Source: a virus
Reading direction: 5' to 3' (one strand)
Length of the DNA stretch: 27,478 nt
IMG/VR virus record: IMGVR_UViG_3300032293_000269
Span: 1-27,478 of that record
This document shows positions 2,282 through 26,775 of the stretch, in pieces (the first letter of the stretch is position 1; every line of letters starts with the position of its first letter). The notes beneath the pieces were generated by a model. The model saw only the letters and a program-made list of their open reading frames with translations. It was not told the DNA's origin and made no database searches. The position numbers were made by a program, and so were the translations under genes.

Positions 2282-2709
2282 TTAAAGAAGAAATAAAAAC
2301 TAAGATATTAAATACAATACAAAAAGTAACAGGAGTAGATATAACAACTAAAACACGAAAGTATGAGTTTATAGAAGCTAGAATGATTTACTATAAACTA
2401 TTAAGAGATAGAGGTTATTCATTACAGGAAATAGGAGATACACTAGATAAAAACCACGCTACAGTATTACACGGAATAAATGTATTTAACGATATTAAAG
2501 ATTATGATAAAGATTTAATGGAAAAGTATAGTGCGGCAATACAATTACTAGCAGGAGAAAAGATAAGCAAGTATATTACACCTGATGAATATGCTGTAGA
2601 GTTTGCATACTGGTTACTAAAAGATAGCGACCTAGTTATTATTGATGTAAAAGATTTATTAAAAGAATTTAAAAAAGAAGTAGGATATGAATGTACTAAG
2701 CTTGTTTAA
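2278..2709 (+). CDS. DnaA domain IV-like DNA-binding protein
   Basis: A 143-residue protein. Residues 15-75 resemble the C-terminal helix-turn-helix of the replication initiator DnaA: a helix with EARMIYYKLLRDRGYS, then LQEIGDTLDKNHATVLHGI (49-67). KNHATVLHG corresponds to the DnaA signature D-H-[TS]-T-V-L. There is no AAA+ ATPase domain, so it cannot act as a complete initiator. It may bind DnaA-box-like sites in the phage origin, recruit or compete with host DnaA, or act as a regulator. Residues 85-143 are an acidic helical extension that I do not recognise. It overlaps the methyltransferase gene by 23 bases. Confidence 0.75.
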   Translation: MIKEEIKTKILNTIQKVTGVDITTKTRKYEFIEARMIYYKLLRDRGYSLQEIGDTLDKNHATVLHGINVFNDIKDYDKDLMEKYSAAIQLLAGEKISKYITPDEYAVEFAYWLLKDSDLVIIDVKDLLKEFKKEVGYECTKLV

Positions 2710-3535
2710 TGGAATGAACACAGGTCGCCAAGCATTAGAGAATGTAGGTATCAAAGTAAATAAGTATTACTCAAGTGAAATTAAACCTTATGCAATAGAA
2801 TTAACACAGCATCACTTCCCTGATACTATTCAGGTAGGAGATGTTACTAAATGGAAAGAGTGGGATATAGATTGGAGTAGTATTGATTTAGTATTAAGTG
2901 GATCACCTTGCCAAGATTTAAGTGCTGCAGGTAAAAGAGCAGGAATTAACGGAAAGAAGTCAAGTTTATTCTTTACATTTGTAGAAATATTAGAACACAT
3001 AAAACAATTAAACCCTAAAGTATTATTCTTACAAGAAAATGTAGGTAGTGCAAGAAAAGAAGATGTAGGTATTATGAGTAGAGCTTTAGGAGTTTACCCT
3101 GTTAGAATTAATAGTAGTTTAGTAACTGCACAATTAAGAGATAGGTATTATTGGAGTAATATAAGAACTAGACAAGATGGAATGTTTGGAGATATTATAA
3201 CTGATATACCACAGCCAAAAGATAGAGGTATAATGTTTAAAGATATTATAACAAGTGGTGAAGTTGAAAGAGATAAATCTTTAGCATTATTAGAAAGCGA
3301 AAGTAGAGTTTGTACAAGCCAGGAAAGTATTAAGAAAAGAGCAAAAAGGCAATTTATTAATATAATTTATGATGGAAATTTAGTAAGAACAGTAAACAAA
3401 ATAGAAATGTGTAGATTGCAAGGTTTTCCTGATAATTATTGTGATATACTTACAACTGCAAAAGCAGGTAGCTTACTAGGTGATGGATGGACTTTACCAA
3501 TAATAGAACATATATTTTCATTTATAAAAAACTAA
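2687..3535 (+). CDS. DNA (cytosine-5) methyltransferase, orphan
   Basis: A 282-residue enzyme that would transfer a methyl group from S-adenosylmethionine to C5 of cytosine. All core motifs are visible: SLFNGMNTGR (5-14, cofactor loop, motif I), GSPCQDLSAAG (72-82) with catalytic C75, QENV (116-119, motif VI), QLRDRYYW (149-156, motif VIII), RLQGFP (243-248, motif IX) and GSLLGDGW (261-268, motif X). The target recognition region between VIII and IX is short (about 85 residues), typical of compact phage enzymes. No restriction enzyme is encoded nearby, so protection of phage DNA from host restriction, or regulation, is the likely role. The start overlaps the upstream gene, and an intact motif I right at the N terminus supports it. 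Confidence 0.93.
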   Translation: MNVLSLFNGMNTGRQALENVGIKVNKYYSSEIKPYAIELTQHHFPDTIQVGDVTKWKEWDIDWSSIDLVLSGSPCQDLSAAGKRAGINGKKSSLFFTFVEILEHIKQLNPKVLFLQENVGSARKEDVGIMSRALGVYPVRINSSLVTAQLRDRYYWSNIRTRQDGMFGDIITDIPQPKDRGIMFKDIITSGEVERDKSLALLESESRVCTSQESIKKRAKRQFINIIYDGNLVRTVNKIEMCRLQGFPDNYCDILTTAKAGSLLGDGWTLPIIEHIFSFIKN

Positions 3536-3538
3536 GAT

Positions 3539-3847
3539 ATGAATAAACAAAATATTTACGATGTAATAGATATACTATATAAACAACCTAAGTGCTACCT
3601 TTGGGATAAACAATACAACCAATGGGAAGAAGATGACTTTAAATGCTTACAAACTATAGTAGATAATACTTACGATGGTAAGATAAAAACTAAGAAAAGA
3701 AAAACAATTACAATACTATCACCAGATAAAGAATTCTATACCTTTACTACCTATAAAGAAGCAGCTACCTTTTTAAAAGTTAAACTACCTGTAATATCTA
3801 TAGCAGTAAAGAAAGGATATAATATTAACGGACACAAAATAGTTTAA
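3539..3847 (+). CDS. Hypothetical protein with NUMOD1-like C-terminal helix-turn-helix
   Basis: A 102-residue protein. The C-terminal 45 residues (ILSPDKEFYTFTTYKEAATF, then a V..I..A.KKGY..NGHKI pattern) resemble the NUMOD1/NSR DNA-binding repeat found at the ends of homing endonucleases. A nuclease domain is absent. It may be a stand-alone DNA-binding protein or the remnant of a mobile endonuclease. The N-terminal half is tryptophan and aspartate rich and unfamiliar. It starts 3 bases after the methyltransferase stop. Confidence 0.6.
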   Translation: MNKQNIYDVIDILYKQPKCYLWDKQYNQWEEDDFKCLQTIVDNTYDGKIKTKKRKTITILSPDKEFYTFTTYKEAATFLKVKLPVISIAVKKGYNINGHKIV

Positions 3848-6388: not shown

Positions 6389-6416
6389 TTAGTTAGATTA
6401 ATTTTTTTTTGGTTAG

Positions 6417-6442
6417 GGTAGTCAGAAATGGCTACCTTTTTT
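6417..6442 (+). terminator. Rho-independent terminator, GGTAG/CTACC type
   Basis: Stem GGTAGTC (6417-6423) with GGCTACC (6430-6436), loop AGAAAT, then six T residues. It separates the small early cassette from the tail module. Confidence 0.85.
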
Positions 6443-6484: not shown

Positions 6485-7171
6485 ATGCAGGTTAAAATAA
6501 CTATACCTACTTCTTTAAACGAAATTACCTTAGAACAATATCAAAGGTTTGTATCTATTATGGAGAACAACCCAGAAAGTAATTTTGTGCAGCAGAAAAT
6601 GATAGAGATATTTTGTAATGTACCTTTAAAGTTAGTTGACTTAATGCCTTTAAAAGACGTTAACGAAATTATAGAAACTTTAGATAAAATGTTTAGCGTA
6701 GATTACAAACTTAAACCTATCTTTAAATTGGGTGATACTAACTTCGGTTTTATTCCTAACTTAGATGATATTACTTTAGGTGAGTTTAGCGATTTAGATA
6801 ACTACTTTGGTAAGTGGGATAAAATGCACAATGCAATGGCTGTACTATACAGACCAATAACAGATAAAAGTGGTGATAAGTATTTAATACAAGATTACAA
6901 CGGAAGTATTACTTACTGTGATGTAATGAAGCAAATGCCTTTAGATGTAGTTTTAGGTGCTATGGTTTTTTTTTACAATTTAAGCAACGAATTATTGATT
7001 TCTTCCCTGAATTATTTGGAGATGAATCCACAGGTACAAGCTATGATAGACAAACACAATTCGGATCTAAATGGGGATGGTATAGCTCTTTCTATGCTCT
7101 CGCTAAAGGAGATGCTGGAAGATTTGATGAAGTATCGAAACTTCGGCTTACAGCTGCACTTACATTCCTAA
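6485..7171 (+). CDS. Tail assembly chaperone, zero-frame product (gpG-like)
   Basis: A 228-residue product. The N-terminal half (LNEITLEQYQRF at residues 11-22, then FCNVPLKLVDLMPLKDV) matches the tail assembly chaperone of Bacteroidota siphophages by pattern. Such proteins coat the tape measure before tube assembly. At codons 161-163 there is a run of nine T (6966-6974). From there the -1 frame is also open for 85 codons. The zero-frame tail of 65 codons has 32 with G or C in the third position against 14 of 66 in the -1 frame (hand count), so genome-typical codon use passes to the -1 frame. This mirrors the G/GT pair of lambda-like phages. Confidence 0.75.
   Translation: MQVKITIPTSLNEITLEQYQRFVSIMENNPESNFVQQKMIEIFCNVPLKLVDLMPLKDVNEIIETLDKMFSVDYKLKPIFKLGDTNFGFIPNLDDITLGEFSDLDNYFGKWDKMHNAMAVLYRPITDKSGDKYLIQDYNGSITYCDVMKQMPLDVVLGAMVFFYNLSNELLISSLNYLEMNPQVQAMIDKHNSDLNGDGIALSMLSLKEMLEDLMKYRNFGLQLHLHS
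6966..6974 (+). other. Probable -1 ribosomal slippery site
   Basis: Nine consecutive T residues read as GTT TTT TTT TAC. T TTT TTT (6967-6973) fits the X XXY YYZ heptamer, allowing both the P- and A-site tRNAs to re-pair one base back. The -1 frame then continues TTA CAA TTT AAG. Confidence 0.6.
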
Positions 7172-7230
7172 CATTTGAAAAAGAAAAACAAGAAATAGAA
7201 TCACAAATGCTAAAAAAATATGATATATAA
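6973..7230 (+). CDS. -1 frame extension of the tail chaperone (gpGT-like T domain)
   Basis: It has no independent start that I would trust; it would be made by a -1 shift on the T run, giving 163 residues of the zero frame plus 85 new ones (248 in total). The extension contains IIDFFPELFG, KWGWYSSFYALAKGDAG and a helix ending in FEKEKQEIE. The W.WY..FYALA.GD pattern looks like a real, conserved-type domain, and its codons have the A/T-rich third positions of the rest of the genome. It ends 11 bases inside the next gene. In known systems the T domain binds the tape measure or tail tube protein. A one-base homopolymer sequencing error is the main alternative. Confidence 0.65.
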   Translation, partial: LQFKQRIIDFFPELFGDESTGTSYDRQTQFGSKWGWYSSFYALAKGDAGRFDEVSKLRLTAALTFLTFEKEKQEIESQMLKKYDI

Positions 7231-7936
7231 TTTAATACAAACAATTAAGGATGCTTTATTAGCAGAACCTTTTTGCAATACAGTAACCGAAGGAGATATA
7301 TTCGAAGTTGATTTAAACAAACGAACTATATTCCCTTTAACGCATATAATGATTAATTCATCTACACACCAAGGTAATGTTATTTCTTTTAATGTTACTA
7401 TGCTTTGTATGGATGTTATTAATCAAAAAGAAAACGATAATAAAGTAGATATTTGGAATACTCAACATTTATTAGCTACAAGGGTTTTAGATTTACTTAA
7501 TAGAGGTGATTTAAGAGATGGCAACTATGAATTATCAGGCAATCCAAGTTATGAACCATTTACTGAAAGATTTGAAAATGATTTAGCAGGATGGGCTGTT
7601 ACATTTGATATAGTACTTGCAAACGATATGACTATTTGTGGTGATACAATTCCTGTTTATAGTCAAGTGGTAAGTTTTGCAACTCCAATGAATTCTATAG
7701 TTTATAGATGTGATGGTGATTTCTTAGCTGCATCTTATGGTAACAACGAAAACAACCTAACAGATTTAATAGATATGTTTAATTCAGATCCACCTGTAGC
7801 AAATAACGCAACCTTTTTAGAGTATGGTGTTTGTTATGATAATGGTGATGGTAGGGTAAGAATGGAGATGACACAAGAAGCTTATAATGCACTTTCTTGT
7901 AATGGAAGTTTAACCCTTGATGTTATCTACGATTAA
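7220..7936 (+). CDS. Putative tail terminator or tail completion protein
   Basis: A 238-residue protein. Residues 1-150 show a mixed alpha/beta pattern (MIYNLIQTIKDALLAEPF, then IMINSSTHQGNVISFNVTML, then RFENDLAGWAVTFDIVLAND) like small phage proteins that cap the head-proximal end of the tail tube. The position directly after the chaperone pair agrees. The last 85 residues, from IPVYSQVVS onward, form an extra beta-rich region that may be a decoration or second domain. It ends in a TAATG overlap. The tail terminator call is inference. Confidence 0.5.
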   Translation: MIYNLIQTIKDALLAEPFCNTVTEGDIFEVDLNKRTIFPLTHIMINSSTHQGNVISFNVTMLCMDVINQKENDNKVDIWNTQHLLATRVLDLLNRGDLRDGNYELSGNPSYEPFTERFENDLAGWAVTFDIVLANDMTICGDTIPVYSQVVSFATPMNSIVYRCDGDFLAASYGNNENNLTDLIDMFNSDPPVANNATFLEYGVCYDNGDGRVRMEMTQEAYNALSCNGSLTLDVIYD

Positions 7937-8448: not shown

Positions 8449-9582
8449 ATGAAAGTATTTAATTGTAGAAGTCCGTATATTATTAGCATAGATAATGGTA
8501 ATACACAAATAGCAACTAAATTAGAAATTAAAATTTGGAGAATAGGTAATGCAGAAAACACTGCTATAACTAAATCTATACAAAAAACTAAATTTGGACC
8601 AGATCAATATATAAATCATTATAATATAAGTCCTTTTGTTTATGACTTAATAGATACATTTAAAAATAATGTTTTATCATTTGCATATAATGTTAAAGTA
8701 ACTAAATATTCTGATACTGGAGAAGGTTTTGAAGATATAGGAAACGAATCTTTAGTATCTGTTAATGGTTATAATGATTACGAAAACCCTAATTATAATT
8801 ATACTGATTCTATAGCTATTTTAAATACAAATGGTACAACCTATAACGCTACAGGTTATGATGTTAATTATTACTATGATACAAACACAATACCTGAAAT
8901 AGATTTAATTATTGACTTTACAAGTACAACAAGTGATTATAGAATTAAATATAGTACCACTGCTTTTGTAGACGATCATTACGAAACTTATAATAGTTTT
9001 GTTAATTATGATAATGATGATTCTATTTTCCAAGATAGACAACCAATGGTAGTAGCTCCTAATGATGGTGTAATAGTTAGTACAGTTTTTTCAATAGAAG
9101 AAATTATACCAGAATTTCCAAGAGCTACAATTTATAGTTGTAAATTAATTGCAAACTGCGAACAAAAATATAATCCATTTGCTTTAGAGTATGTAAATAG
9201 ATTAGGCGGTAAACAAACTATGACTTTATTTAAAAATAGTACACAAACTATTAATACAAAAGCTACTGATTATAATACAAATAATTTCACAAACAATTAT
9301 CCTACATATAATAGATATCTAGGTCAAAAAAGAATATTTAATAAAAACGGAAATAAAACTATTAAATGTAATACTGGTTGGCTAAATGAAAATGATAATA
9401 TAAATATACAAGATATATATTTAAGTGAAATGCTTTATTTAACTTCTGCTGATGGTACTATTGATGCAGCAGTTATTTTAAAAAATAGTTCACAACAAAT
9501 TAAAACGCATTTAAACGAAAAAGTAATTAATTACGAATTAGAATTTGAAATTGCAAGTTCATTAATAAATAATGTAGTATAA
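8449..9582 (+). CDS. Virion tail protein, possibly distal tail-like
   Basis: A 377-residue protein rich in Asn, Tyr, Thr and Asp and almost entirely beta strand. It opens with MKVFNCRSPYIISIDNGNTQ and has YNISPFVYDLID near residue 58, a pattern I associate with tail proteins of Bacteroidota phages. The position between the gp10-like gene and the large tail-tip gene suggests a distal tail or tail-tip scaffold. It ends in a TAATG overlap with the next gene. No catalytic motif seen. Confidence 0.55.
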   Translation: MKVFNCRSPYIISIDNGNTQIATKLEIKIWRIGNAENTAITKSIQKTKFGPDQYINHYNISPFVYDLIDTFKNNVLSFAYNVKVTKYSDTGEGFEDIGNESLVSVNGYNDYENPNYNYTDSIAILNTNGTTYNATGYDVNYYYDTNTIPEIDLIIDFTSTTSDYRIKYSTTAFVDDHYETYNSFVNYDNDDSIFQDRQPMVVAPNDGVIVSTVFSIEEIIPEFPRATIYSCKLIANCEQKYNPFALEYVNRLGGKQTMTLFKNSTQTINTKATDYNTNNFTNNYPTYNRYLGQKRIFNKNGNKTIKCNTGWLNENDNINIQDIYLSEMLYLTSADGTIDAAVILKNSSQQIKTHLNEKVINYELEFEIASSLINNVV

Positions 9583-12041: not shown

Positions 12042-12192
12042 AAATATAATTCAATTATTGCAACTGCAAGACCATTATGGAGTTAGCGAAAATATAGAAA
12101 TTGCAAAAGGTAAAAACGAATTACCTAGTACATTCAAACAAGGATATAGACAAATCAAAAGAAAATTAAAATGGCAATCGAAAAACAAATAA
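12034..12192 (+). CDS. Small basic protein overlapping both neighbours, 52 aa
   Basis: It begins MLKNIIQLLQLQDHYGVSEN, continues IEIAKGKNELPSTFKQGYRQ and ends with a lysine-rich helix. It overlaps the stop of the tail-tip gene (ATGCTTAA, 12034-12041) and runs 22 bases into the tape measure gene. This double overlap fills an otherwise empty 129-base gap, which is good evidence for a real coupled gene. It may be a tail accessory factor; no family is recognised. Confidence 0.65.
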   Translation: MLKNIIQLLQLQDHYGVSENIEIAKGKNELPSTFKQGYRQIKRKLKWQSKNK

Positions 12193-13865
12193 ATCTAAAT
12201 GTAAATAGTAATATTGAAGGTTCTATTTCTGAGTTAAGGTCTTTAAAAAGAGAATTAAAGAACACAGCAGCAGGAAGTGAGGACTTTAAAAAGCTTTATA
12301 ACCAAATAGACGACTTAGAAGATAAAATTAAATCTGCTAAAAATACTTCATCTGATTGGGTTGATAGTTTAGAACAAGTTGGTGGACCATTAGGATCTTT
12401 AGGTGCAGGAATTAACAAAGTTAAAGTTTCTACACAATCTTTTGGTGCTGCTTTAAAAGCTACAGGAATTGGTTTAATAGTTGCTGCTGTTGCTGGGTTA
12501 GCCGCTGCATTTTCTCAGAATGAAGATGCTATGAAGAAGTTAAAACCTTTAACAGAAGCTTTTGAAAAAATACTTGGTGGAATATTTAGAGCATTAGAAC
12601 CTTTAATAGATTCTTTTATGGATCTAGCGATGAAAGCTTTACCATATATTACACAAGGTATTGGTTTGTTTTATTCTGGGCTTGTTGGTTTATTTACTTA
12701 TGTAAAAGAAGCAGGTGGTGGTTATATTAAAATGATGAAAGGTATTGTTACCTTAGATTTTGATGCAGCTAAAGAAGGGTTTAACCAAATGAAAGATAGT
12801 TTTAAAAATGCTGTAAAAGGTGGAGAAGAAGCTTACAAAAGATTTCAATCAGGTAGTAAAGAACAAACTAAAGCTGAAAAAGAAGAATTAACTAAACGTA
12901 GAGAAGAACAACAAAAGCACCAAGAAGAATTAGCTAAGAAACAACAAGAAGCTGCACAAAAAGCAGCAGAAGAAAGAAAAAGAAAAGCAGAAGAAGCTAG
13001 AAAAGCAGAAGAAGATAGAAAGAAAGCTGAATTAGATTTAGAGCAAAAGTATTTAGATGAATTACTAAATATGAATGCTAAAACTGAGCAAGAAAAATTA
13101 GATTTACAAGCTCAAAGAGATTTAGAAGAAATAAATAGAATAGCTAAAACTGAAAATGAGAAAGCTAATTTAATGGCTTTATACAATGAAAAGTATGCTA
13201 CTTTAAACCAAGAATTAAAAGACAAAGCGGATGCTGAAGCTGCTGAAAAACAAAAGACAAAAGATGAAGCGGAAAAAGCTGCTAAAGATAAAAAGGCACA
13301 AGAAGATATTGATAGAGAAAAAGGAGTAGCAGAAGCCAAAAAAAATATTCAACAAAGTCAATTACAAGCTGCCGAAGGTTTTATAGGTTTAATTAAATCT
13401 ATGGGTGAAAATAATAAAGGTTTACAAAAAGCTGCTTTAATTGCTGAAAGTGCTATTGGTATTTCTAAAATTATAATTAATACTCAAGCTGCTAATGCTG
13501 CTGCTAGATTGAAATATGCTTTACTTCCAGGAGGTGCTGCTTTAGCTGCTACTGAAATAGTAATGAACAAAATAAACGCAGGTATTGGAATTGCTGCAAA
13601 TATTGCTGGTACTGCTAAAGGTTTAGCTGCTCTTGGTGGTGGCGGTGGTGGTGCTGGAGGTGCTGATGTAGGCGGTGGCGGTGGCGGTGGAAGCGCTCCT
13701 GCTGCTCCAAGTTTTAATGTAGTTGGTGCTGGTGGTGCAAATCAAATAGCACAAGTAATGAGTGATCAAGGTGCTGCACCTGTACAAGCTTATGTAGTTG
13801 CTAGTAATGTAACATCTGCACAAAGTTTAAATAGAAACATAGTAAACAACGCTACATTAGGATAA
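12171..13865 (+). CDS. Tape measure protein
   Basis: A 564-residue protein with the usual architecture. The N-terminal helix carries IEGSISELRSLKRELKNTA. A hydrophobic stretch lies at residues 92-115 (LKATGIGLIVAAVAGLAAAF) with further apolar helices to about 180, then a long Lys/Glu/Ala coiled coil at about 228-400, a second apolar helix region and a glycine-rich linker (about 485-512). The conserved-looking end is AYVVASNVTSAQSLNRNIV. It sets tail length and is ejected into the cell with the DNA. At roughly 0.15 nm per residue the tail would be about 85 nm (rule-of-thumb estimate). The glycine-rich DNA near 13635-13695 is simple sequence. Confidence 0.88.
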   Translation: MAIEKQINLNVNSNIEGSISELRSLKRELKNTAAGSEDFKKLYNQIDDLEDKIKSAKNTSSDWVDSLEQVGGPLGSLGAGINKVKVSTQSFGAALKATGIGLIVAAVAGLAAAFSQNEDAMKKLKPLTEAFEKILGGIFRALEPLIDSFMDLAMKALPYITQGIGLFYSGLVGLFTYVKEAGGGYIKMMKGIVTLDFDAAKEGFNQMKDSFKNAVKGGEEAYKRFQSGSKEQTKAEKEELTKRREEQQKHQEELAKKQQEAAQKAAEERKRKAEEARKAEEDRKKAELDLEQKYLDELLNMNAKTEQEKLDLQAQRDLEEINRIAKTENEKANLMALYNEKYATLNQELKDKADAEAAEKQKTKDEAEKAAKDKKAQEDIDREKGVAEAKKNIQQSQLQAAEGFIGLIKSMGENNKGLQKAALIAESAIGISKIIINTQAANAAARLKYALLPGGAALAATEIVMNKINAGIGIAANIAGTAKGLAALGGGGGGAGGADVGGGGGGGSAPAAPSFNVVGAGGANQIAQVMSDQGAAPVQAYVVASNVTSAQSLNRNIVNNATLG

Positions 13866-18320: not shown

Positions 18321-18354
18321 AAGGGTGGTGGAATAAACACCATCCTTTTTTTTT
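18321..18354 (+). terminator. Strong rho-independent terminator after capsid gene
   Basis: A 10-pair stem, AAGGGTGGTG (18321-18330) with CACCATCCTT (18338-18347, one G-T pair), loop GAATAAA, followed by a T run to 18354. It would limit the abundant capsid transcript. Confidence 0.9.
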
Positions 18355-18380: not shown

Positions 18381-18908
18381 ATGGCTTGTGATATTTCATT
18401 AGGTAGAATTGAACCTTGTAAGGATTCAGTAGGTGGATTGAAAGCTGTTTATTTCGTAAATTATGGTGATGCTACAGGTTACACTTACAATGGCACTAAT
18501 ACAGATGTTATTGATGATGTAGCTGGTACTCCTACAGCTTATAAATACGATTTAAAAGGTGCTTCTACATTTACACAAAATATAAATAGTTCTAGGGAAA
18601 ATGGAACTACTTTCTTTGAGCAAGTATTAGCTCTTACATTTAAAAAATTATCTATTGTAGATAACAAACAACTTAAATTGATGGCTTATGGCCGTCCACA
18701 AGTTATTGTTGAAGATAACAATGGTAATTTCTTTTATGCAGGATTAAAACACGGAATGGATGTAACAGGTGGTACTATTGTAACAGGTGGTGCTATGGGA
18801 GATCTTTCTGGGTATACTTTAACTTTAACAGGTATGGAACCAGTACCAGCTAACTTTATCGGAGATACTTTAGCAGGTGCAGGGTTTACTGTTGTTGTTG
18901 GATCTTAA
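18381..18908 (+). CDS. Putative major tail tube protein
   Basis: A 175-residue protein. GRIEPCKDSVGGLKAVYFVN (8-27), YKYDLKGASTFTQNINSSRE and NGTTFFEQVLALTFKKL, then MAYGRPQVIVEDNNGN, GMDVTGGTIVTGGAMGDLSG and YTLTLTGMEPVPANF. The strand-helix-strand pattern and size suit a tail tube subunit; I associate these motifs with abundant virion proteins of Bacteroidota siphophages. It sits alone between two terminators, consistent with separate high-level expression. The tube role is inferred from size, pattern and absence of a better candidate. Confidence 0.65.
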   Translation: MACDISLGRIEPCKDSVGGLKAVYFVNYGDATGYTYNGTNTDVIDDVAGTPTAYKYDLKGASTFTQNINSSRENGTTFFEQVLALTFKKLSIVDNKQLKLMAYGRPQVIVEDNNGNFFYAGLKHGMDVTGGTIVTGGAMGDLSGYTLTLTGMEPVPANFIGDTLAGAGFTVVVGS

Positions 18909-25562: not shown

Positions 25563-25590
25563 GGGTAGCGTAACAGCTGCCCTTTTTTTT
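25563..25590 (+). terminator. Rho-independent terminator, GGGTAGC/GCTGCCC
   Basis: Stem GGGTAGC (25563-25569) and GCTGCCC (25576-25582, one G-T pair), loop GTAACA, then eight T residues. Closes the NinG unit. Confidence 0.88.
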
Positions 25591-26746: not shown

Positions 26747-26775
26747 GGGTAGTGTAAAAGCTACCCTTTTTTTTT
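26747..26775 (+). terminator. Rho-independent terminator, GGGTAG/CTACCC
   Basis: Stem GGGTAG (26747-26752) and CTACCC (26761-26766), loop TGTAAAAG, then nine T residues. It lies between the SSB-like gene and the helicase gene; I see no clear promoter in the 17 bases that follow, so the helicase may depend on read-through. Confidence 0.85.

What the first reader, a model, noticed from the sequence alone, without database searches (positions are those of the whole stretch)
6966..7230. Programmed -1 frameshift in the tail chaperone with a long dual-coding region
A run of nine T (GTT TTT TTT TAC) is followed by two open frames: 65 more codons in frame 0 and 85 in frame -1. The -1 frame encodes a domain-like sequence (KWGWYSSFYALAKGD, FEKEKQEIE) and has genome-typical A/T third positions (14 of 66 G/C against 32 of 65 in frame 0, counted by hand). 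The arrangement equals the G/GT chaperone pair of lambda-like phages, but the overlap of about 200 bases is longer than the usual short one and would force two proteins to share the same DNA.
Basis: partly seen in the sequence, partly recalled or inferred. Interest (0 to 1): 0.75.

Follow-up and report, generated by a model that had tools for sequence, protein, structure and literature searches.

The report
Phage slippage gene with two tails
A gene in an uncultured phage, probably of Bacteroidota, makes two proteins by slipping at a run of nine T, and for about 60 codons after the slip the same DNA encodes both protein ends; relatives across a large phage group keep the run and, in nearly all cases, both ends.

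Summary
All 181 homologous loci with both frames complete carry the run at the same codons: nine T in 177, ten in 4. In 177 of 181 the frame-0 reading stays open for at least 48 codons while frame -1 runs about 80-93 codons into a conserved KWGWY...GD domain. In 35 divergent representatives, frame 0 past the slip has no stop where about 96 are expected. Half of the 40 testable frame -1-synonymous columns there are base-constrained, against 1 of 86 upstream. So the overlap is genuinely dual-coding. Known lambda-type sites sit a few codons before the first stop (lambda 5, P2 6; published mean 26 nt); here the distance is about 190 nt. The two products are therefore nearly equal in length (228 and 248 aa) with alternative helical C-termini. 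The G/GT-like tail chaperone role is plausible, but no homology to lambda or HK97 chaperones was found. Which machine slips is open: no RNA stimulator, a pure T9 run, and sharp avoidance of A>=9 runs in these phages' genes fit RNA polymerase slippage at least as well as ribosomal -1 frameshifting. New variant of a known kind.

The parts
6485..7171 (+). Frame-0 ORF, 228 aa, with stop TAA 7169-7171; first product (G-like)
   Evidence: homologues; phrog_32199 (unknown function) E 2.5e-22
6485..6973 (+). Shared N-terminal part of both products (163 codons), the phrog_32199-like domain
   Evidence: structure model
6966..6974 (+). Run of nine T (slip site)
   Evidence: T9 in 177 and T10 in 4 of 181 loci; never shorter
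6967..6973 (+). In-phase heptamer T_TTT_TTT (two Phe codons), the candidate ribosomal slip site
   Evidence: phase; Phe-Phe invariant in 41 aligned members
6974..7168 (+). Frame-0 tail, 65 codons, dual-coded with frame -1; predicted helical
   Evidence: no stops vs 96 expected in 35 representatives; 20 of 40 frame -1-synonymous columns constrained; helices
6973..7227 (+). Frame -1 extension, 85 codons (T-like domain, KWGWY...GD, FEKEKQEIE); stop TAA 7228-7230
   Evidence: more than 590 IMG/VR stretches encode relatives
7220..7936 (+). Next gene (238 aa, phrog_30964, unknown function); its ATG overlaps the frame -1 end by 11 bases; conserved neighbour
12171..13865 (+). Probable tape measure protein, 564 aa, downstream in the same module
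   Evidence: phrog_1535 tape measure E 3.2e-4; synteny

Best explanation
One gene makes two proteins with the same 163 first residues and different ends. Unslipped expression gives a 228-residue protein with a 65-residue helical tail read in frame 0. Slippage at the T9 run moves reading into frame -1 and gives a 248-residue protein with an 85-residue tail that carries the WGWY domain. For about 65 codons the same DNA encodes both tails, and both are under selection. The frame -1 domain has the more genome-typical codon use, so it is probably the older one and the frame-0 tail was overprinted on it. Shown here by comparison: the conserved slip site, both frames, and selection on both. Inferred: that both proteins are made, and that they act in tail assembly like lambda G and GT, with the shared part binding the tape measure protein and the minor WGWY form recruiting tail tube protein. 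Also inferred: what slips. I lean slightly to RNA polymerase slippage adding one U on T9 (about 50%) over a ribosomal -1 slip on T_TTT_TTT (about 45%). The protein made would be identical. The confidence given is for the two-product, dual-coding core, not for the slipping machine.
For: Site: T9 or T10 at the same codons in all 181 loci; across 55 representatives the A-site Phe codon is always TTT although TTC would be synonymous in both frames in all but one of them (P about 1e-6 from phage codon use). The frame -1 domain cannot start on its own: 50 of 55 representatives have no ATG in that frame before the domain and 29 have no ATG/GTG/TTG at all. Frame 0: openness P 0 to about 0.05 in most loci against synonymous resampling of frame -1. 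In 35 representatives under 72% identical, 0 stops vs 96 expected and similarity well above a no-stop null (z 20), while the upstream control shows 657 stops vs 660 and z 1-2. Fourfold sites of frame -1 diverge 0.36 inside the overlap, 0.54 after the frame-0 stop and 0.67 upstream. 20 of 40 fourfold columns in the overlap are base-constrained (p<1e-3), many favouring Leu or Glu/Asp in frame 0, vs 1 of 86 upstream. Older frame: frame -1 has better codon fit in 31 of 33. RNA polymerase lean: no conserved stem-loop (mean z about 0); A>=9 runs 4 vs 30.5 expected in coding while A5-A8 are at 0.8-0.9, and T7 avoidance does not depend on phase; runs of 9 A or T are where bacterial transcription slips, and U_UUU_UUU is a poorer ribosomal site than A_AAA_AAG in E. 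coli (PMC5009743).
Against: No RNA or protein data exist here. The two T beyond the heptamer can be explained by the residues they encode (V/L/I/F before, Y/W/F after), so T9 need not mean RNA polymerase. Avoidance of long A runs may come from indel mutation rather than slippage. The known lambda-type cases are ribosomal. The third frame also shows raised similarity in the overlap (z 15), so part of the signal is general nucleotide constraint, and substitutions at frame -1 fourfold sites are not conservative in frame 0 on average. The column tests treat representatives as independent, with the upstream region as the only guard against shared ancestry. In the Nonlabens phage lineage and L090/L091 the frame-0 tail is short (16-39 codons), so the tail is not essential everywhere.
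Confidence: 0.8

Rival explanations
1. The slip is ribosomal: -1 frameshifting on T_TTT_TTT, as in lambda G/GT, with T9 a by-product of the encoded residues.
For: The heptamer is in the correct phase in every homologue, also in L089 where the T run lies in a shifted register. Documented phage tail chaperone cases are ribosomal. A low yield would need no stimulator.
Against: No stimulatory RNA structure. The A-site codon is never TTC. U_UUU_UUU is weak in E. coli (PMC5009743). T7 avoidance in these genes is no stronger in the slip phase than in the others.
Confidence: 0.45
2. The frame-0 tail has no function as protein. Frame 0 is only kept open so that most ribosomes end close to the next gene's start (coupling, protection of mRNA).
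For: The frame-0 stop lies about 50 bases before the next ATG in the window and in most relatives near the end of frame -1. Substitutions at frame -1-synonymous sites are not conservative in frame 0.
Against: Beyond stop avoidance, specific columns are fixed: Leu 30/30 and 45/49, Glu 36/44 in frame 0, at sites free in frame -1. The neighbouring Ala codon two positions away has near-neutral base use. Similarity exceeds the no-stop null by z 20.
Confidence: 0.12
3. The gene is not a tail assembly chaperone but another two-product phage protein.
For: No homology to lambda G, HK97 gp13/gp14, no PDB fold match, families all of unknown function. It sits next to terminase rather than between tail tube and tape measure genes.
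Against: A slip-made N-domain plus extension upstream of the tape measure gene in a conserved module is the hallmark of G/GT genes; weak match to phrog_166 'tail protein' (best E 0.0075).
Confidence: 0.25
4. Sequencing error in the homopolymer: the true run is T10 and one fused frame is read.
For: Homopolymers are error-prone in principle.
Against: T9 in 177 of 181 loci from many projects, including cultured Nonlabens phages and a Flagellimonas isolate; frame 0 beyond the run is under selection.
Confidence: 0.01
5. The frame -1 domain is a separate gene with its own start codon.
For: Nonlabens phage P12024S is annotated that way.
Against: No ATG in frame -1 before the domain in 50 of 55 representatives; in several loci a frame -1 stop lies 3 codons before the slip; the FF-L-x-F segment joining the two parts is conserved.
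Confidence: 0.03

Closest known systems
Lambda gpG/gpGT tail assembly chaperone pair (also P2 E/E+E', HK97 gp13/gp14)
   Same: Shared N-terminal part, slip into frame -1, C-terminal extension only in the slipped product, gene in the tail module upstream of the tape measure gene.
   Different: Zero-frame codons after the slip: lambda 5, P2 6, HK97 about 5 against 65 here and a median of 61 in the group. Published mean distance from site to stop is 26 nt in actinobacteriophage genes (PMC10885494). No sequence homology. Site is a pure T9. Products are of similar length with alternative ends.
Nonlabens phages P12024S/P12024L genes 38/39 (phrog_32199 and phrog_38404)
   Same: True homologue: same T9 site (CTT TTT TTT TAT), same neighbours, frame -1 WSWY domain.
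   Different: Frame-0 tail only 25 codons; annotated as two separate hypothetical genes without a slip.
Transcriptional slippage at A9/T9, e.g. Thermus thermophilus dnaX, Shigella type III secretion genes
   Same: Long pure A or T run, product made by standard translation of slipped mRNA (PMC5009743).
   Different: Here the slipped frame opens a conserved 85-codon domain and the unslipped frame also has a conserved tail; slippage itself not shown.
Long dual-coding frameshift overlaps of RNA viruses (influenza PA-X, cardiovirus 2B*)
   Same: A shift opens a long overlapping frame under selection in both frames.
   Different: Different machinery and hosts; listed by analogy from general knowledge and the reference list of PMC5009743.

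Membership tests
Lambda-type G/GT tail assembly chaperone | Two products sharing the N-terminus through a programmed -1 shift | tested here: met
   At sequence level: slip site and both frames conserved in all loci, no independent start. Products not observed.
Lambda-type G/GT tail assembly chaperone | Slip site close to the end of the first ORF (short overlap) | tested here: not met
   65 codons here, median 61 in 55 representatives, vs 5-6 in lambda and P2
Lambda-type G/GT tail assembly chaperone | Gene lies directly between major tail protein and tape measure genes | tested here: not met
   It lies between terminase and the 7220 gene; the probable tape measure gene is several genes downstream; candidate tail tube gene at 18381 is assigned only by inference
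Lambda-type G/GT tail assembly chaperone | Sequence or fold homology to known G/GT chaperones | tested here: not met
   hhalign probability 0.1-0.2% vs lambda G and HK97 gp13/14; no Foldseek PDB match. Such proteins are known to have low sequence similarity, so this weighs little.
Lambda-type G/GT tail assembly chaperone | Product ratio near 30:1; binding of tape measure and tail tube proteins | not testable with these tools
   needs proteins
-1 ribosomal frameshift site (X_XXY_YYZ) | In-phase slippery heptamer | tested here: met
   T_TTT_TTT in phase in every representative
-1 ribosomal frameshift site (X_XXY_YYZ) | Stimulatory RNA element (optional) | tested here: not met
   mean folding z about 0 upstream and downstream; no consensus structure
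Transcriptional slippage site | Uninterrupted A or T run of 9 or more | tested here: met
   T9 177, T10 4 of 181; never shorter, never broken by TTC
Transcriptional slippage site | mRNA population with extra or missing bases | not testable with these tools
   needs RNA sequencing
Dual-coding (overprinted) region | Selection on both reading frames | tested here: met

The most novel reading that the evidence does not exclude
A phage group makes a tail-chaperone-like pair with alternative, dual-coded C-terminal domains by RNA polymerase slippage at an invariant T9 instead of ribosomal frameshifting, with the frame-0 tail overprinted on the older frame -1 domain.
Probability: 0.45. Interest if true: 0.75.

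Novelty: new variant of a known kind. Interest (0 to 1): 0.62.

Why it matters
Tail chaperone frameshifts are textbook cases, with a zero-frame product that stops soon after the slip. Here a whole phage group keeps some 60 codons that encode two protein ends at once, which turns a length-control trick into a switch between two C-terminal domains and gives a clear case of overprinting in DNA phages with over a hundred natural variants. The invariant T9 makes a sharp question testable: can a structural phage gene set its product ratio through RNA polymerase slippage? Gene callers split these genes, as in the Nonlabens phages, so the frame -1 domain is missed or misnamed.

Tried and rejected
Sequencing error or simple fused frame: rejected by the comparison. 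Independent start for frame -1: rejected. Stimulatory stem-loop or pseudoknot: not found by windowed folding z-scores or RNAalifold; the one consensus helix pairs the T run with a conserved coding stretch at only -0.86 kcal/mol (pseudoknots not modelled). Function from families: Pfam and NCBIfam give nothing, PHROGs only unknown families and one weak tail hit. Foldseek of the frame-0 model against the PDB: no match. Profile comparison with lambda G and HK97: nothing. Conservative-substitution test in frame 0 at frame -1 fourfold sites: no signal (t -0.57); the column-fixation test on the same sites was strongly positive. A query with a divergent fused protein found only itself. The tree could not say whether the short frame-0 tail of the Nonlabens lineage is ancestral: it sits on a very long branch; in L090/L091 the short tail is nested and so probably secondary.

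Full report
What is there. In the window a 228-codon frame-0 ORF (6485-7171) contains GTT TTT TTT TAC with nine T at 6966-6974. Beyond it frame 0 stays open 65 codons (TAA 7169-7171) and frame -1 stays open 85 codons (6973-7227, TAA 7228-7230). The next gene starts at ATG 7220, overlapping the frame -1 end. The window is a virus record of 27,478 bases with 28% G+C.

Relatives. Searches of IMG/VR with the frame-0 protein, with the Nonlabens phage homologue and with a frame -1 alignment, and of genome contigs with a fused alignment, gave well over 200 loci. Of the 181 analysed with both frames complete, 177 have T9 and 4 have T10, none shorter. L089 has lost the T after the run and has TTT before it, so that nine remain. 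Frame -1 always continues, mostly 80-93 codons, with the KWGWY...GD and FEK.K..LE motifs. The zero-frame tail is at least 48 codons in 177 of 181, and only 16-39 in the Nonlabens phage lineage and in L090/L091. The only named relatives in the phage collection are Nonlabens phages P12024S and P12024L, annotated as two separate hypothetical genes.

Is frame 0 real? Four lines of evidence say yes. (1) Synonymous resampling of frame -1 with each phage's codon use rarely leaves frame 0 open as long as observed: 0 of 4000 for the window, P mostly under 0.05 elsewhere. (2) In 35 representatives under 72% identical, the overlap has no frame-0 stop where 96 are expected and its frame-0 similarity exceeds a null already freed of stops (z 20). 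The upstream single-coding part behaves as the null (657 vs 660 stops, z 1-2). The third frame in the overlap is not stop-depleted (238 vs 226) though its similarity is raised, as expected when nucleotides are doubly constrained. (3) Fourfold sites of frame -1 diverge 0.36 in the overlap, 0.54 after the frame-0 stop and 0.67 upstream in distant pairs. (4) In 55 representatives, 20 of 40 fourfold columns of frame -1 in the overlap depart from neutral base use at p<1e-3, against 1 of 86 upstream. Many of the fixed bases give Leu or Glu/Asp in frame 0: Leu 30/30 and 45/49, Glu 36/44. An Ala codon two positions before the Leu-fixed one is near neutral. One test was negative: the substitutions that do occur at these sites are not conservative in frame 0. 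AlphaFold2 predicts helices in the frame-0 protein that run across the slip and into the tail (residues 153-180, 182-194, 199-216) at moderate confidence, and an all-helical frame -1 domain.

Which frame is older? Frame -1 has near-native codon use and frame 0 has not, in 31 of 33 representatives, so the frame-0 tail looks overprinted on frame -1. The tree does not decide whether the short tail of the Nonlabens lineage is ancestral.

How is frame -1 reached? Not by its own start codon: 50 of 55 representatives have no ATG there before the domain, and in some loci a frame -1 stop lies three codons before the slip. So something slips on the T run. The heptamer T_TTT_TTT is in the right phase for a ribosomal -1 slip. 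Against a purely ribosomal reading stand four points. There is no conserved stimulatory structure. The second Phe codon is never TTC although that is silent in both frames in nearly all of them (P about 1e-6). Coding A runs of nine or more are strongly avoided in these phages (4 vs 30.5 expected) while A5-A8 are only slightly so, and T7 avoidance does not depend on phase. Bacterial RNA polymerase slips on runs of nine A or T, whereas U_UUU_UUU is a poorer ribosomal site than A_AAA_AAG in E. coli (PMC5009743). Against the polymerase reading: the two T outside the heptamer may be imposed by the residues encoded, and run avoidance may reflect mutation. Both routes give the same protein. I put RNA polymerase at about 50%, ribosome at about 45%.

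What does it do? The order terminase - this gene - 7220 - 7936 - 8449 - 9582 - probable tape measure gene is conserved in relatives. A slip-made extension in the tail module upstream of the tape measure gene is the mark of G/GT chaperones. But there is no homology to lambda G or HK97 gp13/14, no PDB fold match, families are of unknown function, and the gene is not adjacent to tail tube or tape measure genes. So 'works like G/GT' is likely (about 70-75%), 'is a G/GT family member' is unproven.

What is different. In lambda and P2 the zero-frame product ends 5 and 6 codons after the slip, in HK97 about 5, and the published mean for actinobacteriophage chaperones is 26 nt (PMC10885494). Here it is about 190 nt, so the two products are almost equally long and differ by alternative ends. 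I found no report of this in the held literature, which lacks most subscription journals.

Noticed in passing
L083 (JQ823122.1) 3001-3695: Nonlabens phage P12024S genes 38 and 39 are one slip gene (CTT TTT TTT TAT) annotated as two hypothetical proteins; PHROGs likewise holds them as phrog_32199 and phrog_38404.
   Followed up: partly
coding genes of 55 related loci: Coding A runs of nine or more are about eightfold rarer than synonymous shuffles predict while A5-A8 are near expectation; long T runs are avoided from seven up, in every phase.
   Followed up: partly
window 6395-6440, 18346-18354, 25583-25590, 26767-26775: Several intergenic T8-T9 runs follow CCC/TCC or lie near GG-rich short inverted repeats and may be intrinsic terminators.
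   Followed up: no
L090, L091: Phage contigs binned in 'Euryarchaeota' and 'Pseudooceanicola' MAGs carry this gene with the same neighbours; the bins are probably contaminated by phage contigs.
   Followed up: no
L087 6001-6750: A Flagellimonas onchidii isolate contig carries the gene (T9, 70-codon overlap) with the usual downstream genes but no match to this terminase; a possible cultured prophage for experiments.
   Followed up: partly
window 12171-13865: Probable tape measure protein of only 564 aa.
   Followed up: no
window 2687-3535: ORF that looks like a C5 cytosine DNA methyltransferase among the early genes (from sequence motifs, not tested).
   Followed up: no
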